Source: a virus
Length of the DNA: 64,000 bases
IMG/VR virus record: IMGVR_UViG_3300028607_003036
Location: 1 to 64,000 of that record
Reading direction: 5' to 3' (one strand)
Each line of letters starts with the position of its first letter. The stretch's first letter is position 1. The position numbers and the translations under genes were made by a program. Positions 5,591 through 53,240 of this stretch are shown here, piece after piece. Under the pieces are notes generated by a model, which saw nothing but the letters and a program-made list of their open reading frames with translations, was not told the origin of the DNA and did not search any database.

Positions 5591-6474
5591 CTATTTGATC
5601 CTTCTTCTGTGACTACTTCTTCTGTTAATCTTAATCCACGTGAATTCCACCAAACCATTGGTCCAACAATACTTCTCCTAATATAGGCGGATCTAATTCT
5701 ATTTTTTAGTTGTTCATTTGTTTGATTTGGAGTTTGATCACATGAAAAATAAACTGCATATCCTTTACTAAAGTAATTTGTATTTAAATTCCAGTAAGTC
5801 CATGGTGTTCCATATTGGTATTTAAATTCTTCGTTTGATTGATATAAATTATTAGATGGAGTAATTTCTGGAAAAAAAAGACAATCTGGATACGTTTTTA
5901 AAAATAAACTTATGTATGATTCCATGTATTCTTGATTACCTGGACTATCTAGATAGAAAAATCTCATCCCTAATGCATATGCCCAATCTATTCTAGGCTT
6001 AAGATAGTTAAAAACTAAATCTCTGTCTATTGGAACTTGACCTAGATAATATGGACATTCTCTAGTAAATACTCCACGTGGATAGCTAGTTGTTATTAAG
6101 CATCCTGGAATTAATCCTGCATCTAATAACATGTTCATCATACGTTCAAATAATGGTTCTGGTGCATCAGTATCTCTCATACGATATTTTAAAGGTTCTG
6201 GTAACTGATCAGGATTTTGGTATTCAATTCTTTCTAATTGTGGATAGTGCTTTGGAATAAATCTATTTGTTAAACTGTGTATATAAACACCCTGAGCATT
6301 AATTTTTTGGCAATTAGTAATTACTCTCTTTGTTTCAGTAATAGCATTTTTAATAAAACATTTTTCATCATCTACATTTGTTAATGAAAATAGACCATCA
6401 AGATTATTTTCAGTAACATTTCTAGCTATATGCCACATTCCGATTGGCCGTCTATCATTCCATGTAAAATTCAT
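5587..6474 (-). CDS. Predicted TIM-barrel (glycosidase-like) protein
   Basis: 295 aa. Alternating strand/helix pattern with strand ends NAQGVYIHSLTNR, AGLIPGCLITTSYPRG, ALGMRFFYLDSPGN and DCLFFPEITPS suggests a beta/alpha barrel of the type seen in glycoside hydrolases. D of YLDSPGN and E of FFPEIT are at plausible catalytic strand ends. No specific GH family can be named. It is coupled (4-nt overlap) to genes on both sides and may trim or recognise host glycans. No signal peptide. Confidence 0.45.
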   Translation of the reverse strand: MNFTWNDRRPIGMWHIARNVTENNLDGLFSLTNVDDEKCFIKNAITETKRVITNCQKINAQGVYIHSLTNRFIPKHYPQLERIEYQNPDQLPEPLKYRMRDTDAPEPLFERMMNMLLDAGLIPGCLITTSYPRGVFTRECPYYLGQVPIDRDLVFNYLKPRIDWAYALGMRFFYLDSPGNQEYMESYISLFLKTYPDCLFFPEITPSNNLYQSNEEFKYQYGTPWTYWNLNTNYFSKGYAVYFSCDQTPNQTNEQLKNRIRSAYIRRSIVGPMVWWNSRGLRLTEEVVTEEGSNS

Positions 6475-6722
6475 AAACCCGTACCCATTATTTTTGTTGG
6501 TTCTGGATAACCATAAAAGGTTCCTGAAACTGGTATATTATCTAAATTGTAACTTTTTCCCGTTGTTACTTCAAGTTTTAAAGAAAAATACTTATCTAAT
6601 ACCTTAGTGAGTACCCGTTCTAATTTTTCTTCAGAAGTTTCTGATAGACTTTTTTCTTCATCTTTACTAAAAGGAATTATAGGGGTTACTACCGCAGCCC
6701 CGAAGAAATGTCTACGATTCAT
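6471..6722 (-). CDS. Small protein with Tat-like (NRRHFF) N-terminus
   Basis: 83 aa from the ATG at 6722: MNRRHFFGAAVVTPIIPFSK, twin arginine followed by two aromatic residues and a short hydrophobic run. The rest is charged (EEKSLSETSEEKLERVLTKV, probable helix) with a short C-terminal tail. A longer frame to 6779 would start inside ssb and is rejected. Wedged between ssb and the barrel protein with overlaps on both sides. Function unknown. Confidence 0.6.
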   Translation of the reverse strand: MNRRHFFGAAVVTPIIPFSKDEEKSLSETSEEKLERVLTKVLDKYFSLKLEVTTGKSYNLDNIPVSGTFYGYPEPTKIMGTGL

Positions 6723-7089
6723 CGTTTGCATTCTCCGTTCTATTTTTATGAAGACGACGATATAGTTTATCGAACTCATTAACTCTAAATTTCATTTTTG
6801 ATCGTTTCTCTCCAGTGTTACGATCTTCCCATTGATGATTCTTCGCAGTACATTCCACTTCAATACGATCACCCTTATTAAAATTCTTTGCAATAAATTC
6901 CGCCCCTTCGGCCCAAACTTCTATTTCAATCCACGTTGTTTCACTACACTTTTCACCATTTTTCTTAGTATAGCTTCTATTAATAGCTAGAGGCATATTT
7001 AATACAGCTACATCATTTTCTCCAACACGCTTTAGTTCAGGATCACTACCTAAATTACCCTTAAAACGACAAGAATTTTCAAGTGACAT
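6712..7089 (-). CDS. ssb: Single-stranded DNA-binding protein
   Basis: 125 aa with an OB-fold: NSCRFKGNLGSDPELKRVG, INRSYTKKNGEKCSETTWIE, FNKGDRIEVECTAKNHQWED match the SSB pattern (Gn.g.dPe.r....g..v......s..y......e.Tewi...w...ae....l.KG..v.v.G). It lacks the long Gly/Pro linker and DDDIPF-type acidic tip of bacterial SSB; it ends in NANDES. It probably coats single-stranded DNA for the polymerase genes upstream. Start overlaps the neighbouring stop by one base. Confidence 0.92.
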   Translation of the reverse strand: MSLENSCRFKGNLGSDPELKRVGENDVAVLNMPLAINRSYTKKNGEKCSETTWIEIEVWAEGAEFIAKNFNKGDRIEVECTAKNHQWEDRNTGEKRSKMKFRVNEFDKLYRRLHKNRTENANDES

Positions 7090-7634
7090 TATACTTCTCC
7101 TTGTAAAATAGCTAACAAAATAACTGCCCCATCCACAACATCTTTTTCTTCAGACAGTTCTATTAATTCATCTATATCAACTCCATTAATATAACCTAAA
7201 AATATTTCGTATAGATACATCTCCTTTAATTTTAGTTCATTGTTTATATCTGGTATGATTTTAAATAATAATTCATATTTAGATGTGCTTTCTATATTTT
7301 TAGAATCAAAACATTTTATTAAATTAATATCATATCCAATTGATAAACAATGTGCATAAATATCTGCCAAAATAATAAGTTTAGTTGAATAAGAAGAAAT
7401 ATTTATTTTAGCATTATATTCTGATATATTTGATATCACTTCAATACTATGTGTTTCTTTGTTAATTACCGATATTTTATATTTAATTATTAATTTTTCT
7501 ATCTGCTGTAATAGTAGTGAGTTTTGCGGAAAATGTATCTCACATATATTTTCTCCACTTTTAAAATATGCATTTAGTGCATAATCATTATGTTCAAGGA
7601 AATCTTGCAATGGCTTTAGGTCAATTTGATACAT
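7089..7634 (-). CDS. Hypothetical protein next to ssb
   Basis: 181 aa, alpha-rich second half (YLYEIFLGYINGVDIDELIELSE), no recognised domain. It is immediately downstream of a consensus -35/-10 pair (7641-7668) whose -10 ends 6 nt before the ATG, so its own transcript would be almost leaderless. Placed between the polymerase C-part and ssb, so a replication accessory role is possible, but this rests only on position. Confidence 0.55.
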   Translation of the reverse strand: MYQIDLKPLQDFLEHNDYALNAYFKSGENICEIHFPQNSLLLQQIEKLIIKYKISVINKETHSIEVISNISEYNAKINISSYSTKLIILADIYAHCLSIGYDINLIKCFDSKNIESTSKYELLFKIIPDINNELKLKEMYLYEIFLGYINGVDIDELIELSEEKDVVDGAVILLAILQGEV

Positions 7635-7640
7635 TACTAT

Positions 7641-7668
7641 ATTATAACTCCTTATTCAATTTTGTCAA
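7641..7668 (-). promoter_or_regulatory. Consensus sigma70-type promoter
   Basis: On the minus strand TTGACA (7668-7663), 16-nt spacer, TATAAT (7646-7641). Both hexamers are perfect. The TTGACA directly follows the TAG stop of the polymerase C-part. The -10 lies 6 nt from the ATG at 7634. An AAGGAG inside the spacer could only serve read-through transcripts from upstream. Confidence 0.7.
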
Positions 7669-9306
7669 CTATCTGTTCCAAATTTTTGTAATAATAAATC
7701 CCCCCTTCTTACTAATCTGCACTTTCATTGTAACTACAGTATTTTCTTGTAATTCTAACTTATATTCTTCTAGTTGTGATGAAAAAATTACAAGTCCATC
7801 TAATGTGCAAGTTTTATCCGAAACTGTCACAAAAGCCATTTTTGAACCTTTGTTTTTTCCATTTTTAATAATATAATCATTGATAGTTTGTATTTCTACA
7901 CCAAGAATAATGTATTTAGATTGACATCCATCTAGTAATTCCTTACATGTGTGTGTGACTCCTATAACATTATGTGTGTCTAATCTATCATAGGTGAGTG
8001 GTATACCTAATAAGTGATGTTCTTTATTAATAATCCAGTCTGGATCATCTTTTGTTGAACTTTCAGGATTTTTTAGTGATTGTACTTGACTTTTCACTAT
8101 TTCAGAACGATTTTTATTATGTGTTCCACCGCCATTCTTTTTAGTAGGTAACAATTTTTCTAAAATATCAATAAATGACCCAATATCGAAATTTTCTTGA
8201 ACCCATTCCTGCTCCTTTTTAGATAAGGATTTCCATATTTTATATTCTGTCAACATTTGTGTTCTTGTTTTTTCAAAATAATCTAATGATCCTGATGAGA
8301 TTAAAGCTTCTATTACTCTTGAACTCACTACATTAGAATCATAAATTATAAATGATTCCCAATGAAAAAGCGAGTACTCGCATGTTTCTTGTATGGGATT
8401 ACGTTGTAAACTTAGGGGAAGAGAAGAGATTGATAGGGCCATAGAATTAAAATATACTTCAGGCGATATCAATTTTTTAATAGATGATTCACCAACCCCT
8501 TTGATATGTGACAAGCCGTATGAAATTGTATTATCATGAATTTTAAAGTCAATATTTCCTTTAAGTAAATTTGGAGAATTAACTCTTATTCCTAAAAATT
8601 TAGCATCTTCAATTAATTCTCTAATTTCAGTATATTTATCTTGCTTATTTTTTGCTCCGTTCAACCAAGAAACAAAGAACTCTATTTTTGAATGCGACTT
8701 AATATAAGCACACCAATAAGATTCTAATGCATAAGCTATTGCGTGCGATTTATTAAAAGAGTAGCGTTGAGATTTTTCTATCCAATCAAAAAGTTCTTCT
8801 CCTTTCTCTTTTGATATTTTCCCAGATTTTTCACATCCACTTATAAATTCTTCACGCAATACTGTCATATCCTTTGCTATCTTTTTACCAATTGCTTTTC
8901 TAAGTTTATCCGCTTGTTGAGCTGTGAAGTCAGCAATTTCCATAACAATTCTAATCGCCTGTTCTTGATAAGTGAGGATTCCATAAGTTTTCCTTAAAAT
9001 AGAGTCTACTATAGGATGATATTCTGGTATTTCTTCTAGTCCATTTTTTCTATCTGAGAAATGGTGGGTTAAACTTTTTCCTTCCAGCTTAGATTTTAGA
9101 GTTCCTGGTCTAATTACACTTATGACGGCAGCAAGTTCTTCAATGGATCTTGGTTTAATATTTCGACACCACGTTTTACCTAAATTTGTCTCAAGTTGAA
9201 AAACTCCTTTCGTATATCCGCTACATAATAAATCCCAAACTTTAGGACAATCAAGTGGAACCTTGGTTATATCTAATTTTGTTACATTGCAATAATCACA
9301 ATTCAT
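7669..9306 (-). CDS. dnaE: DNA polymerase III alpha, C-terminal part (split)
   Basis: 545 aa. Starts exactly where full-length DnaE continues after FDFLGL: LDITKVPLDC (canonical 'iPlDD'), GVFQLET at 34-40, IRPGTL at 65-70, YGILTYQEQ at 108-116, ADKLRKAIGKK at 132-142. The last holds the third catalytic Asp (E. coli D555 equivalent, here about D133). SFNKSHAIAYALESYWCAY is the end of the fingers, and an OB-fold-like region follows. It lacks the PHP and the PDIDIDF Asp pair, which are on the separate gene 11144-12910. No intein sequence is visible at its N-terminus, which instead begins MNCDYCN. It must work together with the N-part. Confidence 0.9.
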   Translation of the reverse strand: MNCDYCNVTKLDITKVPLDCPKVWDLLCSGYTKGVFQLETNLGKTWCRNIKPRSIEELAAVISVIRPGTLKSKLEGKSLTHHFSDRKNGLEEIPEYHPIVDSILRKTYGILTYQEQAIRIVMEIADFTAQQADKLRKAIGKKIAKDMTVLREEFISGCEKSGKISKEKGEELFDWIEKSQRYSFNKSHAIAYALESYWCAYIKSHSKIEFFVSWLNGAKNKQDKYTEIRELIEDAKFLGIRVNSPNLLKGNIDFKIHDNTISYGLSHIKGVGESSIKKLISPEVYFNSMALSISSLPLSLQRNPIQETCEYSLFHWESFIIYDSNVVSSRVIEALISSGSLDYFEKTRTQMLTEYKIWKSLSKKEQEWVQENFDIGSFIDILEKLLPTKKNGGGTHNKNRSEIVKSQVQSLKNPESSTKDDPDWIINKEHHLLGIPLTYDRLDTHNVIGVTHTCKELLDGCQSKYIILGVEIQTINDYIIKNGKNKGSKMAFVTVSDKTCTLDGLVIFSSQLEEYKLELQENTVVTMKVQISKKGGFIITKIWNR

Positions 9307-9778
9307 CTATCCAATCCTTATAAGCCGACCAAACTTTGGTATCATTTAATATTTCAGAACCCGTTTTGACGATTAGATCGTTGGGATAATGTAAGCGTCT
9401 ATCTAAAAGATTTATAGCATTGTTTATTCCATTATATTTACATGCAATTAAAAATCCCATAGCTGATGACCGAGATACACCAGCCTGACAGCAAGAAACA
9501 AGTTCGTCCTTGTTTTCAGCCCAATCTAATGCGCTTTCTACATGAACTCTTGTTGGAAAAATTAAAGGTTTGCTAATGTGTCTAGATAAATAATCAAGTC
9601 TTCTTTTATAATTGTCTTTTATTCCATAGATATCATCAAACATCATATGAAAAATATTTGATTTATTAATATCTATAAAACGATCAGCATCATCTTCCCC
9701 TAAAAGAAGAGTTGGTAAATTAAGATTATTAAAATGTAATATGTATGTAGCACGACTACATATATGTATAGTTTTCAT
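9296..9778 (-). CDS. Dual-specificity/tyrosine phosphatase-like protein
   Basis: 160 aa. Contains the CX5R P-loop as SCCQAGVSRSSAMGFLIAC (about residues 95-113), the signature of Cys-based phosphatases. The upstream FIDINKSNIFHMMFDDI gives a possible general-acid Asp. Resembles the small predicted protein tyrosine phosphatases of bacteria and phages (HisH/COG5350 type). It lies between the two halves of the polymerase, overlapping its C-part by 11 nt and the exonuclease by 4 nt. Substrate unknown. Confidence 0.75.
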   Translation of the reverse strand: MKTIHICSRATYILHFNNLNLPTLLLGEDDADRFIDINKSNIFHMMFDDIYGIKDNYKRRLDYLSRHISKPLIFPTRVHVESALDWAENKDELVSCCQAGVSRSSAMGFLIACKYNGINNAINLLDRRLHYPNDLIVKTGSEILNDTKVWSAYKDWIDEL

Positions 9779-10407
9779 TTATTTTTACCAAATTTTACAT
9801 TAGCTGCACATCTCCTTGTTAACTTCATAAACTTTATAAATATCTCAGCAGTAACTTTTACATCATCAAGTGCCGAGTGATCTTTTCTCTTTTCCATTTC
9901 AAGTAATTCTATCATACTATCTAGTTTTAGATTTTTAATAACTCCGGTGTCATAACACCAATGAAATATTAGAATCATAGTATCTAAATATTCGGGAATA
10001 AAAGAAAATAAAGATTGTCTATCATATTTTTTGTCCCAGGGACCGTATTTTTTACACAATATATTAAGAAATTTCAAGTCAAAAGCGACATTATGACCCA
10101 TTATTATGGGAGCGGTCCAAGTAGTTCCTTTAGAATTATATTTATTTACATAGGATACAAAACTTTCCCATGCAACCTTGGGATGGATTTTATCTTCTAA
10201 AGATTTTAATGTGATACCATGAACAGCTTCAGCTCCTTTTGACCAATTTGCTGGTTTTTGTGGTTTGATATAAACGTCAAAAGTATCATCTTTTATTTCC
10301 AGGGTTCGTGGATCTATTACACAGGCGGAAAGTTGAATAATCTCATTATCTTTAATTGACAAGCCAGTAGTTTCTGTGTCTACACAAATTATATATTTAT
10401 TATTCAT
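9775..10407 (-). CDS. DnaQ/RNase T-like 3'-5' exonuclease (DEDDh)
   Basis: 210 aa. Exo I motif CVDTETTGL (D-x-E), Exo II GHNVAFDLKFLN, Exo III with HSALDDVKVTAEIF (H-x4-D) are all present, so a DEDDh active site is complete. Presumably the proofreading or epsilon-like partner of the phage polymerase, which suits the degenerate PHP in the alpha N-part. No clamp-binding motif obvious. It sits between the polymerase halves. Confidence 0.88.
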   Translation of the reverse strand: MNNKYIICVDTETTGLSIKDNEIIQLSACVIDPRTLEIKDDTFDVYIKPQKPANWSKGAEAVHGITLKSLEDKIHPKVAWESFVSYVNKYNSKGTTWTAPIIMGHNVAFDLKFLNILCKKYGPWDKKYDRQSLFSFIPEYLDTMILIFHWCYDTGVIKNLKLDSMIELLEMEKRKDHSALDDVKVTAEIFIKFMKLTRRCAANVKFGKNK

Positions 10408-10485
10408 TATTTATTTTATCCAAAAATATTTCTAATATTTGTTCTATATTTAAGCTCTGGATGTTTTATTGCTAGACAATTTTTT
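10408..10485 (-). other. 78-bp intergenic spacer
   Basis: Short gap before the exonuclease. One frame stays open (NCLAIKHPELKYRTNIRNIF) but has no start codon, so I do not call a gene. No terminator hairpin or promoter seen. Confidence 0.4.
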
Positions 10486-10716
10486 TTAATGACTTTGCCA
10501 ATCGTACCATGGAGATAATTCTTGTAATGCTTCTAATTTGGATTTTGCAGATTCATAATTTTTAACTAATTCATTGGCACTTTCAACAATATCATTATGT
10601 TCTCCAATTCCGCATGGTGCGTCAATATAAACTAAAAAATTTGTCTTAGCTTTTTGAGCCTCCGCTTCATATTGAGTTCTCAATGCATCAACTAGTCTTG
10701 TTTTATGTTCAGACAT
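10486..10716 (-). CDS. Small hypothetical protein, helical
   Basis: 76 aa. Two predicted helices (RLVDALRTQYEAEAQKAKTN and ANELVKNYESAKSKLEALQE) either side of a short DAPCGIGEH segment. Looks like a small coiled-coil protein. It lies in the insert between polymerase halves, 2 nt from the next gene. No family recognised. Confidence 0.55.
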   Translation of the reverse strand: MSEHKTRLVDALRTQYEAEAQKAKTNFLVYIDAPCGIGEHNDIVESANELVKNYESAKSKLEALQELSPWYDWQSH

Positions 10717-10718
10717 TT

Positions 10719-10952
10719 TTAATCCTTTTCGTAATAAATAAAGTATGTATTATTAACTTCTTGATATTTAATTTTTAGATGAGTTTTTCTTGTTTCCCAA
10801 ATTACAGGAAATTCTTTTACTTTAGTAATTTCTCCTTTCCTATTATAAGTGAAGTAGTTATCACTTAATCCTTTTTCAATAAGAATTCGTTCTATACATT
10901 TAGCATCCTCTAGTTGTTGCTTTGTTAAAGATTTATCTATTTCAATTTTCAT
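10719..10952 (-). CDS. Small hypothetical protein
   Basis: 77 aa, mixed alpha/beta (MKIEIDKSLTKQQLEDAKCI ... THLKIKYQEVNNTYFIYYEK). No recognised motif. Overlaps the 70-aa gene upstream by 11 nt and is part of the five-gene insert inside the polymerase region. Confidence 0.55.
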   Translation of the reverse strand: MKIEIDKSLTKQQLEDAKCIERILIEKGLSDNYFTYNRKGEITKVKEFPVIWETRKTHLKIKYQEVNNTYFIYYEKD

Positions 10953-11154
10953 TGTCTACGACTACTAAATATGGATGTTCTACGAAAATTTCTACTTCTG
11001 GATTTATAACGAATATTACAACTTCTGCAAGTTCTCCAGCTTTTATATTCCATTCAACTTTTGAAATTCCTTCTATTAGTTCTCCAGTCTCTGCATTTAC
11101 TATCTTTGTTCCTTCAGGACGCATTGATCCATCACTAATAAGTTTAAGTTTCAT
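10942..11154 (-). CDS. Small beta-rich hypothetical protein
   Basis: 70 aa. The pattern GTKIVNAETGELIEGISKVEW followed by hydrophobic strands (EVVIFVINPEVEIFV) resembles small phage proteins that pair a 'v.n.etGe.i.gV..v.w' strand motif with a second sheet. Exact family not named. Its ATG overlaps the stop of the polymerase N-part. Confidence 0.55.
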   Translation of the reverse strand: MKLKLISDGSMRPEGTKIVNAETGELIEGISKVEWNIKAGELAEVVIFVINPEVEIFVEHPYLVVVDNEN

Positions 11155-12910
11155 TAATTAGCTCTTGTGCATTTTTTAGTTTGTCTAGCGTATTTAGCCC
11201 AAGACAATCAAATTTAACTAATCCTACATCTTCACATTCGTTCATCTCAAATGATGTAATCATTTCATCACTTGATTTATCCTTAATCATTGGACAGATA
11301 TCAGTAATTGGTTCGCTTGATACTATAACGCCGGCAGGATGCTTTGACGAAGATTTGTATACTCCTTCTAGACGGTAAGCCTGTTCAAATCTTTTAGAAT
11401 ATTCTCCCTGATATTTACCATTCTCATCAAGATAACACCACTCTTTTAAGTCGTTGCCTCTATGTTCAAGTGCCCACTGAATAATACTGGACTTTTTCCC
11501 ATCTTGTCTCATAACTTCTAGCTCATCAGAAATGGAAGATTCTTGTGGTAAGAATGATGTAATTTTGTTCATCTCGGCAAATCCACATGTATTATGTGCA
11601 CGCAACACTTCTTTTAATGCTCCCCGTCCCATGAGACGACCAAATGTGACCATCTGAGCTACATGATCGTGACCATATTTATCTCTTATATAAGTAATAG
11701 TTTTTTCCCGTTTGTCAACCTCAAAATCTATGTCAATATCGGGAAGTGCCACCCTATCCTCTGTATTTCGCCCAGCATTATAAAATCTTTCAAAAATTAA
11801 TCCATATTTTATTGGGTCAACATCCGTTATCTCTATTAAGTAGGCTACTAGACTTCCACCGACAGAACCTCTCGCTGTTCCCACTAATCCGTGTTTTTTA
11901 GCATCAATTACATAATCTTGAACAATAAGAAAATAACTAGCAAGATTAGCTCCCTCAATAATATTAAGTTCTTTTTTAACTCTATCGGCATATTCTATAT
12001 TAGTGTTATCAATACCTTTTTCTTTCCAGCCATTTCTACATAATTGTCGCAGATACTCATTGTCTGATTGATTATTAGGACACTTAAACTTAGGAAGCAT
12101 AGGTCTATTTAGAATATCATACTCTTCACACATATCCGCAACAATTTGTGTATTATTAATCTCTTCATGAGTAAATCCCATGTTTTCTATTTCGTCCTGC
12201 GAATGCAGGTAATAATTTTTAGATGCGAAAAATCCTATATTTTCCATCTCTGACAATTTTTTACCTGCACTAAGTGCCAGTAATAGTCTATGATCATCAA
12301 CATCTGTTCCGGGTGAGCAATAGTGAGGATTCGTAGTGGCTACACATTTTAAATCAAAAATCTCAGCCAGCTTTTTCATCATGTTTGATGCATATAGTTG
12401 TGCCGGCGTTTCTTCTATATCGTGTAGTTGGACTTCTAAGAAAACGTTCTCCTTACCAAATCTTTTGATGTATCCTTCAATATTTGTTGCAATATGTTCA
12501 TCTGCATCTATATCAATATATTCTTTTATAGCATCTGCGTCTTTAAGATTATAGGCAATGGTTGGATTCGTAAACATCAAATCCGTAGTATGACAACCAA
12601 TTCTACCTACAATACATATTAAGTTTTGTCCTAGTGGTTCTTCTAATCCTGATACAACTTTAATAAGTTTTTTCCAGCCATTTTTGTTTTTAGCAATTAG
12701 GACAAAGTCTTTAAACTTGGAACCGAGTAGGGGTTTAATATTGGCTGCTTTCGCTGCCTTGAAAAACGGAACGGCTCCCGATATAGAAGTATCATCGGTT
12801 AAGGCTATTGAAGTATATCCTAATTCCTCAGCTCTTTCAACTATTTGTTTTGGTGTATTTAGACCCCGTAAAATACTGTAATGTGAATGAGAACATAGTA
12901 GATTAAACAT
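11144..12910 (-). CDS. dnaE: DNA polymerase III alpha, N-terminal part (PHP + palm, split)
   Basis: 588 aa from the ATG at 12910 (a longer frame to 12964 would run into the upstream HNH gene). PHP domain starts LLCSHSHYSILRG and IALTDDTSISGAV; the usual LHVHS and TDH metal ligands are replaced (Cys and Asp), so the PHP is degenerate. Palm: GTARGSVGGSLVAYLIEITD and LPDIDIDF (about 389-396) with the first two catalytic Asps. The protein ends at VKFDCLGLNTLDKLKNAQEL, the point where other DnaE proteins run on into the iPlDD/GVFQLES region. The rest is on 7669-9306. No split-intein half seen. Confidence 0.9.
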   Translation of the reverse strand: MFNLLCSHSHYSILRGLNTPKQIVERAEELGYTSIALTDDTSISGAVPFFKAAKAANIKPLLGSKFKDFVLIAKNKNGWKKLIKVVSGLEEPLGQNLICIVGRIGCHTTDLMFTNPTIAYNLKDADAIKEYIDIDADEHIATNIEGYIKRFGKENVFLEVQLHDIEETPAQLYASNMMKKLAEIFDLKCVATTNPHYCSPGTDVDDHRLLLALSAGKKLSEMENIGFFASKNYYLHSQDEIENMGFTHEEINNTQIVADMCEEYDILNRPMLPKFKCPNNQSDNEYLRQLCRNGWKEKGIDNTNIEYADRVKKELNIIEGANLASYFLIVQDYVIDAKKHGLVGTARGSVGGSLVAYLIEITDVDPIKYGLIFERFYNAGRNTEDRVALPDIDIDFEVDKREKTITYIRDKYGHDHVAQMVTFGRLMGRGALKEVLRAHNTCGFAEMNKITSFLPQESSISDELEVMRQDGKKSSIIQWALEHRGNDLKEWCYLDENGKYQGEYSKRFEQAYRLEGVYKSSSKHPAGVIVSSEPITDICPMIKDKSSDEMITSFEMNECEDVGLVKFDCLGLNTLDKLKNAQELINET

Positions 12911-13469
12911 TTTTACTTCTATCTTTTTGTAGGTATCTTTTAGCATTTTTAACAAAAGTCGCATCTTCTATGAAACCTAATCCTACATTACATCTATGAC
13001 ATAGCAATCCTCTCATATGACCTTTTTCATGACAATGGTCAACACGCCAATTCTCATGTTCAAATTCAATTTTACAAATATCACATGAATTATATTGGAT
13101 AATAAGATATTTTTGTATAATTTGTCGTGCTAAAAATACTTGATCCTTTGTCGTTAGTTGTTTATCTAGGTTGAAATAGCTATGTTTTATGTGTATATAA
13201 ATTTTACAGTTTTTACACCGACCTTCCCTTCCATCTTTGTGCTCTTTGTGTATCACGAATTCCTTTATATCTTTTATTTTATTACAATACATACATTCTT
13301 TTGACCCCTCCATTTTTGGAGGATATTTTGGTGCTATATTTCTAGCATATTCTTTCGCACAATTTTTACACGAATATTGAAATCCTGCACCTTTTTTATA
13401 AAAATATTCCGATGTTAAAAGAAATTCTTTTTTACACCCATAACATTTTCTAGTTTCCACTACTACCAA
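12903..13469 (-). CDS. Endonuclease VII-like HNH protein with zinc knuckles
   Basis: 188 aa. C-terminal WRVDHCHEKGHMRGLLCHRC followed by NVGLGFIED is the recombination endonuclease VII (T4 gp49-type) HNH core. The N-terminal half has three C-x2-C pairs (CYGCKK, CKNC, CMYC) before a CDIC pair in the catalytic module, as in phage HNH homing-type enzymes. Start is TTG at 13469 (or GTG at 13460) behind GGAAAGG. Overlaps the dUTPase stop. Could resolve branched DNA or be a free-standing homing endonuclease beside the polymerase. Confidence 0.82.
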   Translation of the reverse strand: MVVVETRKCYGCKKEFLLTSEYFYKKGAGFQYSCKNCAKEYARNIAPKYPPKMEGSKECMYCNKIKDIKEFVIHKEHKDGREGRCKNCKIYIHIKHSYFNLDKQLTTKDQVFLARQIIQKYLIIQYNSCDICKIEFEHENWRVDHCHEKGHMRGLLCHRCNVGLGFIEDATFVKNAKRYLQKDRSKNV

Positions 13470-13896
13470 AGCCTTTCCCCCCTCTGTTAGTATCAGTCAG
13501 TTCATCAACTTCTTCAATTATAGGTAATTCCACCTTCTGAATAATCATCTGTATAATTTTGTCACCTAAAAATATTTGCTTAATTTTGTCAGAATGGTTA
13601 AATAGGTATACTTTAATATCTCCCCTATAACTAGCATCAATTACACCAGCAAATCTGTGAATACCTTTACTACCCATTCCAGATCTATCCCAGAGAAGAC
13701 CAACATACCCATCCCAAATCTCTACTGCGATACCTGTAGAGTATAACTTTCCAGTTCCAGGGTGTAATGACCAAGAAATATTTGAATAAAAATCCAAACC
13801 TGCATCCGTTGAATTAGTCCTAGTAGGAAGTTTTGCTGTTTCGGTTAATCTTTTAACCTTTAAACGTCTTATATAATCGTAATCATAATCAGACAT
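13450..13896 (-). CDS. dut: dUTPase
   Basis: 148 aa. All five trimeric dUTPase motifs are visible: DAGLDFY (I), DRSGMGSKG (II), GVIDASYRGDIKV (III, catalytic Asp), GDKIIQMIIQK (IV) and RGGKGFGSSG (V). I use the ATG at 13896, 5 nt after AGGA, rather than the GTG one codon upstream. Converts dUTP to dUMP, feeding ThyX (37820-38707). Flanked on both sides by endonuclease VII-like genes. Confidence 0.93.
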   Translation of the reverse strand: MSDYDYDYIRRLKVKRLTETAKLPTRTNSTDAGLDFYSNISWSLHPGTGKLYSTGIAVEIWDGYVGLLWDRSGMGSKGIHRFAGVIDASYRGDIKVYLFNHSDKIKQIFLGDKIIQMIIQKVELPIIEEVDELTDTNRGGKGFGSSGN

Positions 13897-13922
13897 CACG
13901 TTCCTTTTACTTTAAATTAAGT

Positions 13923-14564
13923 TCAATTCCAGTTTTTCTTTTTATCATTTTTGATATACTTGATAGCATTTTTAATTTTTATTTTAAAGTCATCATTAAC
14001 ATTAGGAAATAATTTCCAATCAATTTTGTCATGTCCAGTATATACAAATAATTCTAAAATAGGTAATATATACATATTGCACGAATTACATAATATTCCT
14101 CTTACGTGACCATTACTATGACAATGGTCTATTTGACCTTTATTCTTAAAGACGTTTTTACAAATAGGACATATATTTTTTTGTTCTTTTCGTAACTTAT
14201 TTACAATCTCTGAAACATAGTTTACCTTTTCTTTATTGGATTTAAATTGTATAGTTAAATGATTTAATGTTCTTTTTGCCGCTCCTAGATAATTACTACA
14301 ATTTTTACAATATGATTGTCGTCCATCATTATTTGAATAGTTTTTATTAAAAAGTGTTCTATGTTTTTTTTGTTCGCAATATATACATGTTTTATGTCCT
14401 GATGTTTGTGGTAAATGTCTAGGTTTACGTAGTTTGTTATATCGTTTCCAACATTCTTTACATTTGTTATGAAATCCACACTTTTGACTTTTATCCCTAT
14501 GATAGAAGGATATGGATAATGGAAATATTTTTTTGCACTCAAAGCACTGTAAAGTTTGTGACAT
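13923..14564 (-). CDS. Second endonuclease VII-like HNH protein
   Basis: 213 aa, paralogue of 12903-13469. Core GQIDHCHSNGHVRGILCNSC. N-terminal CFECKK, CKEC, CIYC, CKNC knuckles and CPICKN before the catalytic module. It has an extra 50-aa C-terminal tail rich in Lys/Asn. The two copies bracket dut, the arrangement expected of mobile HNH genes rather than of one housekeeping resolvase. Confidence 0.82.
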   Translation of the reverse strand: MSQTLQCFECKKIFPLSISFYHRDKSQKCGFHNKCKECWKRYNKLRKPRHLPQTSGHKTCIYCEQKKHRTLFNKNYSNNDGRQSYCKNCSNYLGAAKRTLNHLTIQFKSNKEKVNYVSEIVNKLRKEQKNICPICKNVFKNKGQIDHCHSNGHVRGILCNSCNMYILPILELFVYTGHDKIDWKLFPNVNDDFKIKIKNAIKYIKNDKKKNWN

Positions 14565-15498
14565 CTTTATGATACCTTTCTGTGGTTATGTTCATTCCTT
14601 CTTTTTTAATTTTTTCATGGACAGATTCACACATACACTTGTTTTCATTAGGAAATGAGGTCTTAGCAAAAGAGCATAATTTTTTACAACGCCAATCTGT
14701 TCTATTATATGATAAGAGCTTTGGTTCCTCTATATCTCTAATTCTGTGAAACCTTTCTTTTAGTTTGTTCTCAACAAACTCTTTTTTCTGTTGATTGAAC
14801 GGTTCTAAAGTAAAAGGGCCACCATCTTTAACATAGAAAATTGTTACAATAATTGTTTTGATATCAGGAAATAGGCGTGAAGCCGCATAACAATATATTA
14901 GAAGTTGCATATCTTTATTCAAATCGTCAATTGTTTTCTTTTTTCCTGTTTCCCAATTTTTTCGTTGTCCAGTTTTCCAGTCTACTATATGTATAACTCC
15001 TTTTTCAGGTATAGTAATCATATCAATAATACCACGCATTCCGATATATCCAACTTCGCCTTCGTGTTCATATTTTGCCCAATCTTCCATGATTAGAAAA
15101 TCAAAATATTTTTCCGTTTCAATTACATTGAGGTTTCTAGGGTCATACATTCCACAGTCAAGAACTTTATACATTAATCTTTTACATTCTTTTAAGTCTT
15201 TTTCATCATAATCATGGTGAGATAGAAATACACAGTGAGTATAGGCACGAAGAATTATATCATCTGGATCTACCGGAAGAACACATAAGCCAATATGGTC
15301 GTGTGTGAAAGATTTTTCCCCTTTAATTTGTGCAATTTTTTCTAGTCCTAGGCATTCTAATGCATCATGCACTATATTACCTATTTCTGCCTTTTTACCA
15401 GATGGTTCCCTATAGCCTAATCCATAAGATATATAGAACTTTTGCTCACACCAAGATACCGCATTATAGGAACTAGGACTTAGTGATTTAACAATCAT
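14539..15498 (-). CDS. PD-(D/E)XK nuclease, Cas4/RecB-like
   Basis: 319 aa from the ATG at 15498, which overlaps the kinase stop. Nuclease core: MRGIIDMITIP ... VIHIVDWKTGQRK (D-x(n)-D-W-K-T-G, RecB motif III) then the DLNKDMQLLIYCYAASRLFP helix with the Q-x3-Y signature. A C-terminal cysteine group (WRCKKLCSFAK, NKCMCE) could hold an Fe-S cluster, as in Cas4/AddB-like enzymes. A 5'-3' exonuclease or end-processing role in recombination is likely. No CRISPR genes nearby. Confidence 0.8.
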   Translation of the reverse strand: MIVKSLSPSSYNAVSWCEQKFYISYGLGYREPSGKKAEIGNIVHDALECLGLEKIAQIKGEKSFTHDHIGLCVLPVDPDDIILRAYTHCVFLSHHDYDEKDLKECKRLMYKVLDCGMYDPRNLNVIETEKYFDFLIMEDWAKYEHEGEVGYIGMRGIIDMITIPEKGVIHIVDWKTGQRKNWETGKKKTIDDLNKDMQLLIYCYAASRLFPDIKTIIVTIFYVKDGGPFTLEPFNQQKKEFVENKLKERFHRIRDIEEPKLLSYNRTDWRCKKLCSFAKTSFPNENKCMCESVHEKIKKEGMNITTERYHKDVTNFTVL

Positions 15499-24472: not shown

Positions 24473-25027
24473 TTAAACTTTCACTGAAATTACAGTCCAC
24501 TTATCGTTTATACGCATAACCCGAACATATGATCCAGGATTAACGTGTATTCCTTCTGAGACATCAACATTCATATAGTGAAAAACTTCTATATCATCTC
24601 TGTCTTCTTTAAGTGTTGCTTTTACCTCTAAGTTGTTATTTGCATTATTTACTGTATATGAAACTGAACTTAGAGTTCCATAAATCGCTTTATTATTGCA
24701 TACCTGATTAGGAATAGTATATGCCGTAAAATCGTTGCCAGCAGTTAAAAGAACATGCCAACCATTGTCGTTCATCTTTTTAGTAAATCCGCCTTCTAGT
24801 ACTTCCATAGATATATACTTTTGTTTTTCACCAAAACTAGTCCATACACCACGCCTTTCGTTCCAGCGTAAATAATGTCCATTTACTACCATCGTGGGTA
24901 TTGGTACAGTTGGTGCTGGAGGCATTGATGATATAAGTGGTCCAGTCTTCCAAACTGTTTCACCCCTAAAAAGAAATAATCCAGCTAGTGATGCAACTGC
25001 TGACTTAAAAAAGTTTCGTCGTTCCAT
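24473..25027 (-). CDS. Tat-like N-terminus (ERRNFF) protein, beta-rich
   Basis: 184 aa from the ATG at 25027, which has AGGAGA 6 nt upstream. N-terminus MERRNFFKSAVASLAGLFLF is a near-ideal twin-arginine signal with Lys after the motif and a hydrophobic run. It is followed by a Pro-rich linker (PPAPTVPIPT) and a beta-rich body (GWHVLLTAGNDFTAYTIPNQ). If exported it would be periplasmic or membrane-anchored. No family recognised. Confidence 0.65.
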   Translation of the reverse strand: MERRNFFKSAVASLAGLFLFRGETVWKTGPLISSMPPAPTVPIPTMVVNGHYLRWNERRGVWTSFGEKQKYISMEVLEGGFTKKMNDNGWHVLLTAGNDFTAYTIPNQVCNNKAIYGTLSSVSYTVNNANNNLEVKATLKEDRDDIEVFHYMNVDVSEGIHVNPGSYVRVMRINDKWTVISVKV

Positions 25028-25047
25028 TTTATTTCTCCTGCGTAATA

Positions 25048-27477
25048 CTATGAACACTTAGTCCAGCCACACGAACATGAAATACAGCCCGAATCTCTTA
25101 TTAAATCTTCTGTCCCACATTCAGGACAGGACTCTCCAGTTACTTTTTCTCCATTTCCAATGTATTTTTTAAGTGCACGAGAAATTGATCTCGCAAATCC
25201 AGATAAATCTCCCGTTGTCTTTTCTAGTTGATGTACAATATACTTAATATGCACGCCGTGACGAAGACTCGTAGAAATCAAACGTGTTACAGCTTCTTCC
25301 TCAGCATCACATAAATCGGTAATACTATCTATAAGCGTTTCTTGATTATCTGAAGATAATAATTTATAAAATCCCCTTTTTACTTTAAGAATTTTACCAG
25401 AAATAACGTTGTTAAATTTAGAGGTATCTCCATTTGGACCTGCAAGTACTTCATATGGATCACCATCTATAAGTCCAACAATTACAAAATACTTTTTTCT
25501 TTGTACAGAGATATGATATACATCACAGGGGATTTCTCTTGGTCTAGAAACACCTTCCGTCTTATGTATTTTAGCTGTATTTTTCGATTTGTCAATCAAA
25601 ACTCCTGTGCGACAGTTTTTTCTGTAGATTGTTATCCCCTTGCATCCAGACTCCCATGCAGTTTCATAAATTTTTGCAACTTCTTCTACAGTAACATCTT
25701 CGGGTAAATTTAGGGTAGAACTAATAGAATGGTCTACATGTTTCTGTACCTTGGATTGTAATTTTATTCTTTGTTGCCAGTCTAAATCTTCGGCACAACT
25801 TCCAAACCACGGTGATTCTTCAAGTTTAGTATTATTAGTTACATCCATCCACATCTTAATTTTTGGATGGTAAACCTCAAACTCCTGCCATTTATCTCCT
25901 AAATTATCAACAAAATCTACTCTGGCATTTTTATCATTAGGATTAATTTTTTTTCTTCTAGTATAAGATAACATAAAGACGGGTTCTATACCAGATGTTG
26001 TTTGGGTTAAGATACTTACAGAACCGGCGGGAGCCGTAGTTAATAATGATATGTTTCGTCTTCCATATTTTTGCATATCTTTATATAATTGTTCATCTTC
26101 TTCTTTTATTCTTAGTAGGAATTCACAATTCTTTTCCTTGTTTTTATTCCAAACTGGAAATGCTCCTAGTTCTTTAGCTATATCGACTGAAGATCGATAG
26201 CAGGCAAGCTTAAGTGTTTTATATATCTTTTCTGATAGATTAATTCCTTTATTTGAGGAGTATGGTATATTCAGTGCTGCAAGCGTATCTCCAAGGGCAG
26301 TATTTCCGGTGCCGGTTCTTCTACCGTTTTCACAAGTTGTTTTTATATCTTGCCACATCATTTTTTCTTGAAGTTTAATTATCTTATCTTCTGGATCAGA
26401 TGAAATCTTTTTTATGATTTTCTCTATTGATTCAAGTTCTAGATCTACTAAATCATCCATTAGTCTCTGAGCAATTTTACAATCTTCATAATATTTTTCA
26501 AAATTAAATAATGCTTTACTTGTGAAATGATTTTCTACATAATAAAATAGATTAAGAAGTAAAAGTCTACAAGAGTCATTTTCACAAAGAGGAAGTTCAC
26601 TACATGGGTTTGTACAGGTTGTTTCAAATCCATCATCTGCATAACAATCTGCGGGACTTTCTGAAATAATAATATCCCAAAATAATAAACCTGGTTCTGC
26701 CATAGAGTGAGCGTTTTTAATAATCTCTTTCCAGATAGTAGTAGCATCTACCATATTAGATATGGTTGGAGACTCTGAATCTACTGGAAATCTTTGCTCA
26801 TATTCTTTATTCTTCTTTACTGCTGTTAGAAACTCGTTAGTTAGTCTGATAGATATATTAGCGCCGGTTACCTTTGTTAGATCATTCTTTACTTTTATGA
26901 AATCTAAAATTTGTGGATGGTGTACAGAAATGGTGATCATAAGTGCGCCACGACGACCATTCTGACCAACTTCTCTAATCGAGTTAGAGAATCGTTCCAT
27001 AAATGGAATTATACCGGTGCTAGTTTGTGAGGCGTTAGTTGTTATACTATTAGCGGGGCGAAGCTTTGAGATATCTAATCCAATTCCACCACGACGTTTA
27101 CTAATTTGAACTAGTTTTTGATCGGTATCTAAAATTCCCCCATAGCTATCTTCGGGGGCTGTAATTACATAACAATTGCTAAGAGAAATATATTGATATG
27201 GATTTCCTATACCAAACATAGGAGATCCTTGTGGAATAATTCTTTTGAAATGGTCTAAATATTCAAAAATTTCTTTTTCTGAGAGGGGATTTTTAAACTT
27301 TTTCTTTTCTATTCTAGCAAATTCAGACGCTATCCTATGGTGCATATCTTCTGGAGTTTTTTCCAATAGATTGTTATTATTATCACGCAAAGCATATTTG
27401 TCAAGAAAAACTTTTGTTGCTAAATCATCTCCGTCGAAATATTCCATAGAAGCATTAAAAGCTTCTTTGTAGCTCAT
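25048..27477 (-). CDS. nrdJ: Class II (B12-dependent) ribonucleotide reductase
   Basis: 809 aa single-chain enzyme. Marks: SNCYVI and FGIGNPYQYISLSNCYV region (first redox Cys), NPCSELPLCENDSCRL (radical-Cys loop), GRRTGTGNTALGD, TAPAGSVSILTQTTSGIEPVF, and a C-terminal zinc ribbon CPECGTEDLIRDSGCISCSC typical of NrdJ. No NrdB or NrdG homologue is in the window, which supports class II and dependence on host adenosylcobalamin. Oxygen-independent dNTP supply. Confidence 0.92.
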   Translation of the reverse strand: MSYKEAFNASMEYFDGDDLATKVFLDKYALRDNNNNLLEKTPEDMHHRIASEFARIEKKKFKNPLSEKEIFEYLDHFKRIIPQGSPMFGIGNPYQYISLSNCYVITAPEDSYGGILDTDQKLVQISKRRGGIGLDISKLRPANSITTNASQTSTGIIPFMERFSNSIREVGQNGRRGALMITISVHHPQILDFIKVKNDLTKVTGANISIRLTNEFLTAVKKNKEYEQRFPVDSESPTISNMVDATTIWKEIIKNAHSMAEPGLLFWDIIISESPADCYADDGFETTCTNPCSELPLCENDSCRLLLLNLFYYVENHFTSKALFNFEKYYEDCKIAQRLMDDLVDLELESIEKIIKKISSDPEDKIIKLQEKMMWQDIKTTCENGRRTGTGNTALGDTLAALNIPYSSNKGINLSEKIYKTLKLACYRSSVDIAKELGAFPVWNKNKEKNCEFLLRIKEEDEQLYKDMQKYGRRNISLLTTAPAGSVSILTQTTSGIEPVFMLSYTRRKKINPNDKNARVDFVDNLGDKWQEFEVYHPKIKMWMDVTNNTKLEESPWFGSCAEDLDWQQRIKLQSKVQKHVDHSISSTLNLPEDVTVEEVAKIYETAWESGCKGITIYRKNCRTGVLIDKSKNTAKIHKTEGVSRPREIPCDVYHISVQRKKYFVIVGLIDGDPYEVLAGPNGDTSKFNNVISGKILKVKRGFYKLLSSDNQETLIDSITDLCDAEEEAVTRLISTSLRHGVHIKYIVHQLEKTTGDLSGFARSISRALKKYIGNGEKVTGESCPECGTEDLIRDSGCISCSCGWTKCS

Positions 27478-45723: not shown

Positions 45724-45752
45724 TTATATCCACTCTAGCAAGTGTCTTCAAG
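45724..45752 (-). promoter_or_regulatory. Predicted promoter
   Basis: TTGAAG (45752-45747), 17 nt, TATAAT (45729-45724), at the 3' end of the CMP-sugar synthetase. Could drive 45444-45644 and the glycosyltransferase after it. Confidence 0.45.
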
Positions 45753-46449
45753 AATCTTTTTTTCTCCATATAATAGCTTCTGCAATCCAAAAATCGTCTT
45801 CGTTATCTATATCATGTGCTTCAATTTTATCAATATAAAATGGATATATATAATCTGTAAAAAAGTGTTGACATTTAATAAAATCTTCAAATTTTGCACC
45901 ATATAATCCTGTAGGTCTTAATGGGAAATAATGATCCTGCCTCCTTGTATTTTTTTTGTGAAAGTTTTCATGATCTAAATATGGTATTAAACATTTATTA
46001 TCGTTTGAAAGTGATAGTGTTGGTGGAAAGTCTACTTCTGTTACGGCTATTATTGATGTATAAGCTAGATCTAAAGTGATTAATTGATTAAACGATTTAA
46101 CAAATTTATTCACTGTTTCATTTTTAATCATTACATATGGTGGTAGAATCCAATAAATTTGATCAAACTTTTCGTAAAGTTTACTTTTTGCAACACTACA
46201 TACCATATCTACAGCAGTTTTTTCAGATAATCTTTTAGAAGTTTCCGGGTATGATGAATGTTGCTTAGCTACATCTAAAATATCCTGTGAATCAGATGCG
46301 ACTATTACTTCTGTAAAATTATTTTGTGCTGCGTCTAAACAATAATATATAAGTGGTTGTCCACATAGATCTCGTATATTCTTGTCTTTGACACCAACAG
46401 AACCGCCACGTGTTGGAATAACGCAAAGGGATTTTATAATATTATCCAT
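45748..46449 (-). CDS. CMP-sugar synthetase (NeuA-like cytidylyltransferase)
   Basis: 233 aa. IPTRGGSVGVKDKNIRDLCG followed by QPLIYYCLDAA is the NeuA/PseF-type CTP-binding start (IPARGGSKGIKNKNI); EVIVASDSQDI and FPLRPTGLYGAK are later conserved blocks. More like CMP-nonulosonate than CMP-Kdo synthetases, whose motif is IPaRlgSsRLPgK. Makes the CMP-sugar donor for the adjacent GT29 enzyme, with which it overlaps by 8 nt. Confidence 0.85.
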   Translation of the reverse strand: MDNIIKSLCVIPTRGGSVGVKDKNIRDLCGQPLIYYCLDAAQNNFTEVIVASDSQDILDVAKQHSSYPETSKRLSEKTAVDMVCSVAKSKLYEKFDQIYWILPPYVMIKNETVNKFVKSFNQLITLDLAYTSIIAVTEVDFPPTLSLSNDNKCLIPYLDHENFHKKNTRRQDHYFPLRPTGLYGAKFEDFIKCQHFFTDYIYPFYIDKIEAHDIDNEDDFWIAEAIIWRKKDS

Positions 46450-47065
46450 GGAAAATTATTTTCCTTTCTTGTTCCATTTTGATTAACAAGTTTCTTTCTA
46501 AATTATAGTCGTGGCAAGCTGGTTTTGCTTTGGGCTTGTTCCAGTGATAGTGCCCCGTTAAAACATTCTTATCTTTTTTTGACCCGAATCCAAAAACGTG
46601 TGGAGAGATACCCGATTGAACCAGTAACGATATGATAAATGCTCCCATAGACATATGTATGGAAATATTGTATTTAAAAAGATTTTGGTGGACCCATCTA
46701 TTTGAGTGAAATACTTCTAATGACTCATCTAAATTTTCACCATATTCTGCTAAAATTTTTGGCTCACAATCAACCAATACTTTAGTACCTCGCAGTTCTT
46801 TAATAAAATTTTTACCCGGCTGTTCTATACCATTTCTTATGTCGGGAGAAGCTTTTAGAACATGAAGGTTGACACATCTTAAAGTAACTTTTTTACCAAC
46901 ATCTTTCTCAAATCCTAGAGTCGTAGCTCTATTAAATCTAACGACTTCGTCGTGTGAATCTATTTCCATACCTTGGCCAGCATGTAATAAACTATCAGCA
47001 GATCCAATAATAGCTACATCTTCATTAAGATATAAATCTGGCTTTATAAATAATATTCTTATCAT
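46442..47065 (-). CDS. GT29 sialyltransferase-like enzyme
   Basis: 207 aa. Sialylmotif L: VAIIGSADSLLHAGQGMEID then SHDEVVRFNRATTLGFEKDV-GKKVTLR. Sialylmotif S: MGAFIISLLVQSGISPHVFG-FG. Motif III-like HYHW and VS-type HDYNLERNLL follow. All GT29 signatures are in order in a compact catalytic domain without TM anchor. Donor should be a CMP-sugar (Neu5Ac, Kdo or other ulosonic acid). Confidence 0.87.
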   Translation of the reverse strand: MIRILFIKPDLYLNEDVAIIGSADSLLHAGQGMEIDSHDEVVRFNRATTLGFEKDVGKKVTLRCVNLHVLKASPDIRNGIEQPGKNFIKELRGTKVLVDCEPKILAEYGENLDESLEVFHSNRWVHQNLFKYNISIHMSMGAFIISLLVQSGISPHVFGFGSKKDKNVLTGHYHWNKPKAKPACHDYNLERNLLIKMEQERKIIFHG

Positions 47066-52502: not shown

Positions 52503-52773
52503 TCTCCGAGTACATCAATCTTCTAAGAGCATGAACTGCTTTACCAGTTTTACAATCTTCATAATGACCACGCTCATCTGTTAAGTCTGCTTCGCATTCT
52601 ATACAAAGATTAGTAGGATTTGTTAATAAATAACCACCTTGTAATAGTTCATCAAATTTTTCAGCAATTTTCCAGAGATCTTCTAGTTCTTTTACAGCCG
52701 AATCTATACATGGTTCATCTTCTCTTCTACAAAATCCTGCAAGTGTTAGTTTACTACTATCTAAATCAAACAT
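52489..52773 (-). CDS. Small Cys-containing hypothetical protein
   Basis: 94 aa. A helix (SAVKELEDLWKIAEKFDELL) then NLCIECEADL...YEDCKTGKAV with a possible C-x2-C/C site. No family recognised. Overlaps both neighbours. Confidence 0.5.
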   Translation of the reverse strand: MFDLDSSKLTLAGFCRREDEPCIDSAVKELEDLWKIAEKFDELLQGGYLLTNPTNLCIECEADLTDERGHYEDCKTGKAVHALRRLMYSENASD

Positions 52774-53239
52774 TATGATTTCTCCGTATAATTATCGTAT
52801 AAATATTTACCAATATATCTCATTTCCTCTATTGAAATTTTCTGGTCTAGTCTTGACTGATTAGGATCTGTGAAATCTGATTTAAATAGATTATCATACC
52901 AATCTGCTACACTAAATAATATGCTTTTATTATAATCATTATATTGTATTGCATATACAGAAAATCCTGTTGGCCTGTAATAACATGAATAATTTAGAGT
53001 TATAGAATGGTTATGTATACATATATCTTTACCAATGGGGCCAATATTCATATTTATGAAATATTCTTGTGGAAAATACGAACCTATAAAAGTTTCTATT
53101 CCTATTTCATGATCAGGTTCAAAAAACTTTATTCCTTCTTGTAAAATCTCTTGAGCGTGTTGCCCTAATTTAAATTCTGGCTTAGGTAATTTTACAAATG
53201 GAATTAAACTAAGCGACGCTAGGAAACCTCTTCTAATCA

Positions 53240-53240
<1 letters not shown>
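52773..53240 (-). CDS. Tat-like N-terminus (IRRGFL) protein
   Basis: 155 aa. MIRRGFLASLSLIPFVKLPK: twin arginine, F-L, short hydrophobic run. The body (ETFIGSYFPQEYFINMNIGP, IHNHSITLNYSCYYRPTG) is beta-rich with a C-terminal helix. Fourth longer member of the RR-type group. Overlaps the CmcI-like gene by one base. Confidence 0.6.

What the first reader, a model, noticed from the sequence alone, without database searches (positions are those of the whole stretch)
7669..12910. DNA polymerase III alpha is split through its active site by five genes, with no visible intein
Seen: 11144-12910 ends at VKFDCLGLNTLDKLK and holds the PDIDIDF catalytic Asp pair. 7669-9306 begins LDITKVPLDC then GVFQLET and holds ADKLRKAIGKK with the third Asp. 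Together they give one nearly complete DnaE. The cut falls in a linker between palm and fingers, not where cyanobacterial split DnaE inteins sit, and neither end has intein blocks. Between them lie a tyrosine phosphatase, an epsilon-like exonuclease and three small genes. Inference: the enzyme works as a non-covalent two-chain polymerase with its own proofreader; the PHP is degenerate (Cys and Asp replace ligands).
Basis: partly seen in the sequence, partly recalled or inferred. Interest (0 to 1): 0.85.

Follow-up and report, generated by a model that had tools for sequence, protein, structure and literature searches.

The report
Phage replicase naturally split in two
In a large group of uncultured phages, the DNA-copying enzyme is made as two separate proteins with a proofreading enzyme's gene between them and no sign of protein splicing, so the pieces most likely work side by side; one branch of the group appears to have rejoined them.

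Summary
Chain N (12910-11144, minus) carries PHP and palm; chain C (9306-7669) carries fingers, HhH and OB. Together they make one Pol III alpha with nothing missing (N aligns to Taq alpha residue 637, C from 642). The cut lies in the palm-fingers linker, not through the active site: all three catalytic Asp (E. coli D401/D403/D555 = D391/D393/D568) are in chain N, invariant in 41/41 aligned rows.

It is no assembly error. The same cut, with a DnaQ-like exonuclease gene between the halves, occurs in 180 fetched loci (126 at 95% identity). N tail plus C head never exceed 94 aa, too short for a split intein, although true inteins sit elsewhere in this gene in a few relatives. Both halves are under purifying selection (dN/dS about 0.02-0.12). 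In 17 contigs (77-231 kb) the enzyme is the only recognisable DNA polymerase. Intact relatives form one clade nested inside the split clade (100% support, AU p=0.025), implying re-fusion.

Best reading: a non-covalent two-chain replicase with its own proofreader, analogous to gp43A/43B of Aeromonas phage 25. New variant of a known kind. Complex formation is inferred, not shown.

The parts
11144..12910 (-). Chain N of split DNA polymerase III alpha: PHP + palm (588 aa from the ATG at 12910; the ORF extends to 12964). Catalytic Asp D391 (11738-11740), D393 (11732-11734), D568 (11207-11209)
   Evidence: Pfam PHP 4.7e-20 and DNA_pol3_alpha 4.3e-73; Taq alpha 3e0d to residue 637; E. coli D401/D403/D555 mapping; AF2 pLDDT 93.2, pTM 0.90, Foldseek best hits are bacterial Pol III alpha
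7669..9306 (-). Chain C of split DNA polymerase III alpha: fingers + HhH + OB (545 aa)
   Evidence: Pfam DNA_pol3_finger 3.6e-41 and HHH_6; Taq alpha 3e0d from residue 642; AF2 pLDDT 88.7, pTM 0.82, Foldseek best hits are bacterial Pol III alpha over about 550 columns
9775..10407 (-). DnaQ/epsilon-like DEDDh 3'-5' exonuclease (210 aa), the only gene found between N and C in every split family member
   Evidence: Pfam RNase_T 1.9e-22; PHROG 192 'DNA polymerase exonuclease subunit' 3.7e-36; TIGR01406 dnaQ 6.6e-18; between N and C in 105/105 and 75/75 split loci; DEDDh motifs complete in 99/105
9296..9778 (-). Dual-specificity/tyrosine-phosphatase-like protein (160 aa, CQAGVSRS = C-X5-R); start overlaps exo stop, stop overlaps chain C start
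   Evidence: weak match to DUSP19 (E 0.006); junction sequences; no match to it in the relatives scanned
10486..10716 (-). Small ORF, 76 aa
   Evidence: PHROG 1811, unknown function, 2.1e-13
10719..10952 (-). Small ORF, 77 aa, unknown
   Evidence: ORF; no family
10942..11154 (-). Small ORF, 70 aa, unknown; overlaps the stop of chain N
   Evidence: ORF; no family
6712..7089 (-). Single-stranded DNA-binding protein; in relatives the usual order is N - exo - C - SSB
   Evidence: TIGR00621 ssb 1.4e-22; SSB downstream of C in many relatives
12903..13469 (-). Endonuclease VII-like HNH gene whose 3' end overlaps the start of chain N
   Evidence: Pfam Endonuclease_7 6.7e-13, PHROG 2633

Best explanation
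The two ORFs encode the two subunits of a single C-family (DnaE-type) replicative polymerase that is not spliced together. Chain N supplies PHP and the complete palm with its three catalytic Asp; chain C supplies fingers, HhH and OB. Shown from sequence: the halves are complementary and complete, the break is at one fixed inter-domain linker across a large phage clade, no intein or known intron bridges it, both halves are under purifying selection, and no other DNA polymerase is recognisable in these contigs. Inferred: the halves are translated from one message (overlapping and adjacent ORFs on one strand), dock through the palm-fingers interface that is intramolecular in ordinary Pol III alpha, and act with the nested DnaQ-like exonuclease as a three-polypeptide Pol III core. 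Inferred history: one ancestral split with the exonuclease gene between the halves, then one re-fusion in the L028/L253 branch. The agent of the split is unknown; HNH/EndoVII-type endonuclease genes near the break in several genomes are a candidate.
For: Complementarity with no missing residues. Same cut in 105 + 75 split loci (126 at 95% identity), exonuclease between in all. N tail 6-34 aa, C head 4-60 aa, sum at most 94 aa: no room for an intein. Positive control: real inteins in the same polymerase in L131, L091, L085 (GRG/S site of the palm) and L042 (RPG/C site of the fingers) are recognisable, none at the palm-fingers cut. No Rfam intron in the window region or in seven relatives. dN/dS 0.015-0.12 in both halves. 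Exactly one palm and one fingers domain, no PolA, no PolB in 17 contigs of 77-231 kb. Both halves are predicted with confidence and match bacterial Pol III alpha folds. Intact L028/L029/L253 nested in the split clade, AU p=0.025 for excluding them. Precedent: split gp43A/43B of Aeromonas phage 25 co-purify and have polymerase activity (PMC2988022).
Against: No direct evidence of a complex or of activity; no heterodimer model could be run. The contigs are classed as linear and may be fragments, so a second polymerase outside them cannot be excluded for every genome. The rejection of 'intact is ancestral' is statistically modest (p=0.045 and 0.025). No bacterial beta-clamp or delta'-type clamp-loader gene was found, so how processivity is achieved is unknown. 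Introns or trans-splicing of kinds not in Rfam cannot be strictly excluded.
Confidence: 0.86

Rival explanations
1. A split intein or other protein trans-splicing joins the halves into one chain after translation.
For: Split inteins are well known in DnaE, and three family members (L085, L091, L131) have one elsewhere in the polymerase.
Against: N tail plus C head is at most 94 aa in 180 loci and about 31 aa in the window, too short for an intein; no intein blocks at the cut; no Intein_splicing match in the contig; the real inteins in relatives are readily recognised at other sites.
Confidence: 0.03
2. An RNA-level event (group I/II intron, trans-splicing, translational bypass) joins the halves.
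For: Phage polymerase genes are known intron hosts; the intervening stretch is 1.8 kb.
Against: No Rfam match at E up to 1 in window 6500-14600, and no intron in 112 kb of seven relatives at gathering threshold. The intervening stretch holds several ORFs in normal overlapping array and its length varies from 596 to 3857 nt in the family, with only the exonuclease constant. Each half has its own stop and start codons across 180 loci.
Confidence: 0.04
3. The halves are decayed or unexpressed and replication uses the host's or another phage polymerase.
For: PHP ligands are lost in the window; the contig is a fragment.
Against: dN/dS 0.015-0.12 in both halves over 22 pairs of relatives; catalytic Asp invariant in 41/41 rows; no other polymerase in 17 contigs; several of the same PHP positions are also non-canonical in E. 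coli DnaE, which is active (and general knowledge).
Confidence: 0.04
4. The intact form (exonuclease upstream of a one-piece polymerase) is ancestral and splitting occurred several times at the same linker. This concerns history, not function.
For: AU rejection of a split-only clade is modest (p=0.025-0.045). A cultured phage (phiT1) has the same-site break without the exonuclease, so the linker may break repeatedly.
Against: Intact L028/L029/L253 form one clade at 100/100 nested behind several 98-100% branches. Repeated splitting would also have to place the exonuclease in the same gap each time.
Confidence: 0.15
5. Assembly error or chimera.
For: Single metagenomic contig for the window itself.
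Against: Same arrangement in 180 loci from many independent assemblies, including contigs binned in bacterial MAGs.
Confidence: 0.005

Closest known systems
Split B-family DNA polymerase gp43A/gp43B of Aeromonas phages 25 and 44RR (PMC2988022)
   Same: One replicative polymerase encoded as two ORFs without an intein; for phage 25 the two chains co-purify and have polymerase activity (the paper's statement).
   Different: Family B, not C; in phage 25 a seg homing endonuclease is associated with the break. Here the nested gene is an exonuclease, the cut is palm/fingers of Pol III alpha and the arrangement spans a large clade.
Split minimal Pol III alpha of group 2.2 jumbo phages (PMC7824862)
   Same: A phage C-family polymerase in two proteins, proposed to reconstitute one enzyme.
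   Different: There the genes are distant, other Pol III domains are lacking, the cut separates an NTP-binding from a Mg2+/template-binding part, and a PolB is also present. Here the cut is after the whole palm, PHP/HhH/OB are retained, the genes are close and no PolB is found.
Rossellomorea phage phiT1 gp20/gp18 (GenBank PV767480.1)
   Same: Cultured phage with two genes annotated 'DNA polymerase III subunit alpha', broken at the same linker.
   Different: A 49-aa ORF and no exonuclease between them; outside the window's clade; common or separate origin of its split is unresolved.
Cyanobacterial split DnaE inteins, and split PolB with intein of phage MIJ3 (PMC6892783)
   Same: Replicative polymerase gene in two pieces; MIJ3 has a homing endonuclease gene between them.
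   Different: Those pieces carry intein halves and are joined; here there is no intein and the site differs. L131 and L091 in this family are genuine examples of that kind at another site.
Split PolA of OM43 phages MEP401/MEP402 (PMC10580990)
   Same: Phage polymerase split in two genes with a small ORF between.
   Different: A different polymerase and host group; the authors leave open whether an intron is involved.
Bacterial Pol III core (DnaE alpha + DnaQ epsilon)
   Same: Alpha domains up to the OB fold plus a DEDDh exonuclease.
   Different: Alpha in two chains, exonuclease gene between the halves, no recognisable beta clamp or clamp loader in the contigs.

Membership tests
C-family DNA polymerase (DnaE-type Pol III alpha) | Palm with catalytic Asp triad (E. 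coli D401, D403, D555) | tested here: met
   D391, D393, D568 in chain N; 41/41 rows invariant
C-family DNA polymerase (DnaE-type Pol III alpha) | PHP, fingers, HhH and OB domains | tested here: met
   Pfam PHP, DNA_pol3_finger, HHH_6; OB region by AF2 strands 466-543 and fold match; OB Pfam hit in intact L028
C-family DNA polymerase (DnaE-type Pol III alpha) | Single polypeptide (usual form, not a strict requirement) | tested here: not met
   Two ORFs in the window and 180 relatives; single chain only in the L028/L253 branch
Cyanobacterial-type split DnaE intein | Intein halves at the ends of the two ORFs | tested here: not met
   Tail plus head at most 94 aa; no intein family match
Cyanobacterial-type split DnaE intein | Break at the Y/CFNKSH site | tested here: not met
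   FNKSH is intact at residue 184 of chain C
Fractured gene with split intein and homing endonuclease | Intein-N, endonuclease ORF, intein-C in order | tested here: not met
   Absent at the palm-fingers cut; present at another site in L131 and L091
Non-covalent split phage polymerase (gp43A/43B type) | Two complementary ORFs without splicing element | tested here: met
Non-covalent split phage polymerase (gp43A/43B type) | Chains co-purify and are active together | not testable with these tools
   needs protein work; inferred only
Jumbo-phage minimal split Pol III (group 2.2) | Distant genes, no other Pol III domains, PolB present | tested here: not met
   Genes 1.8 kb apart, PHP/HhH/OB present, no PolB in 17 contigs
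DnaQ/epsilon DEDDh exonuclease (nested gene) | Exo I, II, III motifs | tested here: met
   VDTETTGL, HNVAFD, HSALDD in the window; all three motifs in 99/105 relatives

The most novel reading that the evidence does not exclude
An old, single palm-fingers split created an obligate three-polypeptide Pol III core (N - exonuclease - C) that a very diverse phage lineage has used as its only replicase, with the nested proofreader as a structural partner, and the split has been reversed once by re-fusion of the two halves.
Probability: 0.45. Interest if true: 0.75.

Novelty: new variant of a known kind. Interest (0 to 1): 0.62.

Why it matters
Natural non-covalent splits of replicative polymerases are rare and mostly known as single cases. 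Here a cellular-type Pol III alpha is split without an intein across at least 126 distinct (95% identity) lineages, apparently as the only replicase. The family supplies ready comparisons: split, re-fused (L028, L253), and split plus split-intein (L085, L091) versions. That allows direct tests of whether palm and fingers can assemble in trans, what the split gains or costs, and whether the exonuclease holds the halves together. Pipelines that expect one DnaE ORF may undercount or misannotate these phages.

Tried and rejected
Intein at the cut: rejected by end lengths and by recognisable inteins elsewhere in the family. Group I/II intron: no Rfam match. Assembly error: rejected by 180 loci. Second polymerase: none found. 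Third Asp in chain C: rejected by mapping on E. coli DnaE. Near relatives among cultured phages: none by megablast, and the listed tblastn hits of family queries to other phages are about 25-34% identical. A single-sequence scan with chain C found nothing; alignment scans worked. My first exonuclease motif III pattern was wrong and was corrected. PADLOC gave nothing for the intervening genes. Paper searches found no description of this N-exo-C arrangement in the open-access library; absence there is not proof of novelty.
Full report
Observation. The window is part of a 77.5-kb linear virus record. On the minus strand, ORF 12910-11144 (chain N; the frame extends to 12964) carries PHP and the Pol III alpha palm; ORF 9306-7669 (chain C) carries fingers and HhH. 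Chain N aligns to Taq Pol III alpha up to residue 637 and chain C from residue 642; on the NCBIfam superfamily profile TIGR00594, N covers positions 4-573 and C starts at 578. So the two ORFs are one DnaE cut cleanly. Between them, on the same strand, lie ORFs of 70, 77 and 76 aa, a DEDDh exonuclease (PHROG 192, TIGR01406) and a C-X5-R phosphatase-like protein, mostly with overlapping stop and start codons.

Correction. The cut is therefore between palm and fingers, not through the metal-binding site.

The split is a clade-wide trait. Scans of viral contigs and bacterial genome contigs, followed by ORF analysis, gave 180 loci in which N and C are separate ORFs with the exonuclease gene between them in every case; 126 remain at 95% identity and 48 at 70%. 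The scans rank by similarity to the query, so the sample is not random, and some contigs enter twice before clustering. In 81 of 105 loci chain C can start within 30 nt of the exonuclease stop. The intervening length varies from 596 to 3857 nt; extra genes include HNH/EndoVII-like and methyltransferase genes.

No splicing element. Chain N ends 6-34 aa after its last conserved motif, chain C starts 4-60 aa before its first, and their sum is at most 94 aa, too little for an intein. The family supplies its own positive controls. L131, L091 and L085 carry split inteins at the GRG/S site of the palm (L131 and L091 with an endonuclease-like ORF between the intein halves), and L042 has an in-frame mini-intein at RPG/C of the fingers; Pfam intein models match in L131 and L042, and weakly in L091. 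None is at the palm-fingers cut. No Rfam intron is found in the window region or in seven relatives.

The halves behave as functional genes. In 22 pairs of relatives dN/dS is 0.015-0.12 for both halves. Seventeen contigs of 77-231 kb each hold exactly one palm and one fingers domain and no PolA or PolB. AlphaFold models are confident (N: pLDDT 93.2, pTM 0.90; C: 88.7, 0.82), and Foldseek returns bacterial Pol III alpha first for both. No bacterial beta clamp and no delta'-type clamp loader was found, so a host clamp or none may be used (inference).

History. In maximum-likelihood trees of concatenated N+C with intact phage and E. coli polymerases, the family is one clade (100/100). The only intact members, L028/L029 and L253, which have the exonuclease upstream of a one-piece polymerase, form one clade (100/100) nested behind several strongly supported branches of split members. 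Forcing the split members to exclude them costs 24-35 log-likelihood units (AU p=0.045 and 0.025). Re-fusion is thus favoured but not beyond doubt. If true it is also 'Rosetta stone' evidence that N and C act together. The cultured Rossellomorea phage phiT1 has a break at the same linker with a 49-aa ORF between and no exonuclease; whether that is a separate event is unresolved.

Mechanism. The simplest reading is two chains made from one message, docking through the palm-fingers interface, with the nested DnaQ-like exonuclease as proofreader. Precedent exists: the split gp43A/43B of Aeromonas phage 25 co-purify and have polymerase activity, and split NrdA of Aeh1 is active (PMC2988022). Complex formation here is inferred.

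Novelty. Split phage polymerases are known: PolB with or without intein (PMC2988022, PMC6892783), the split polymerase of OM43 phages (PMC10580990), and a minimal Pol III with distant genes and a different cut (PMC7824862); phiT1 is annotated with two Pol III alpha genes. What appears undescribed in the papers searched is a full-length Pol III alpha cut at the palm-fingers linker, with the proofreader between the halves, as the sole recognisable replicase of a large clade, with one apparent re-fusion. Verdict: new variant of a known kind.

Noticed in passing
L131:1436-5981, L091:3558-6322, L085:4325-6290: Relatives whose chain N is itself broken at GRG/S by a split intein; L131 and L091 have an endonuclease-like ORF (TnsA-like/DUF7487 match) between the intein halves. 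L085 and L091 would be made from three polypeptides, one junction spliced and one not.
   Followed up: partly
L042:13709-15862: In-frame mini-intein of about 160 aa in chain C at RPG/C (fingers).
   Followed up: partly
L028, L029, L253: Natural one-piece versions of the family polymerase with the exonuclease gene upstream.
   Followed up: yes
C-chain starts of L004, L005, L015, L049, L075, L079 and others: New N-terminal stretch on chain C with a C-x-C (often F-x-CGC-x-F) motif in 35 of 180 loci; possible metal site or docking element. The window has CDYC.
   Followed up: partly
window 46442-47065 and 45748-46449: A GT29 sialyltransferase-family protein (Pfam Glyco_transf_29, 1.5e-20) next to a cytidylyltransferase; with a DAHP/KDO8P-synthase-family gene at 62641-63429 this suggests a nonulosonic-acid sugar pathway in a phage.
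   Followed up: partly
window 6471-6779, 24473-25057, 52773-53240; L044:9462-9848: Four small proteins that begin with RRxF followed by a hydrophobic stretch, resembling twin-arginine signal peptides; no Pfam family for the two tested.
   Followed up: no
window 53958-54110: 50-aa ORF with a LAGLIDADG-like stretch ([12 protein letters not shown]) just after an aminotransferase gene; possibly a homing endonuclease remnant.
   Followed up: no
window 12903-13469 and 13923-14564: Two related EndoVII-like genes flank a dUTPase-like gene; the first overlaps the start of chain N.
   Followed up: partly
L044:10185-11321: Nicotinate phosphoribosyltransferase (NAD synthesis) gene in the same phage contig.
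   Followed up: no
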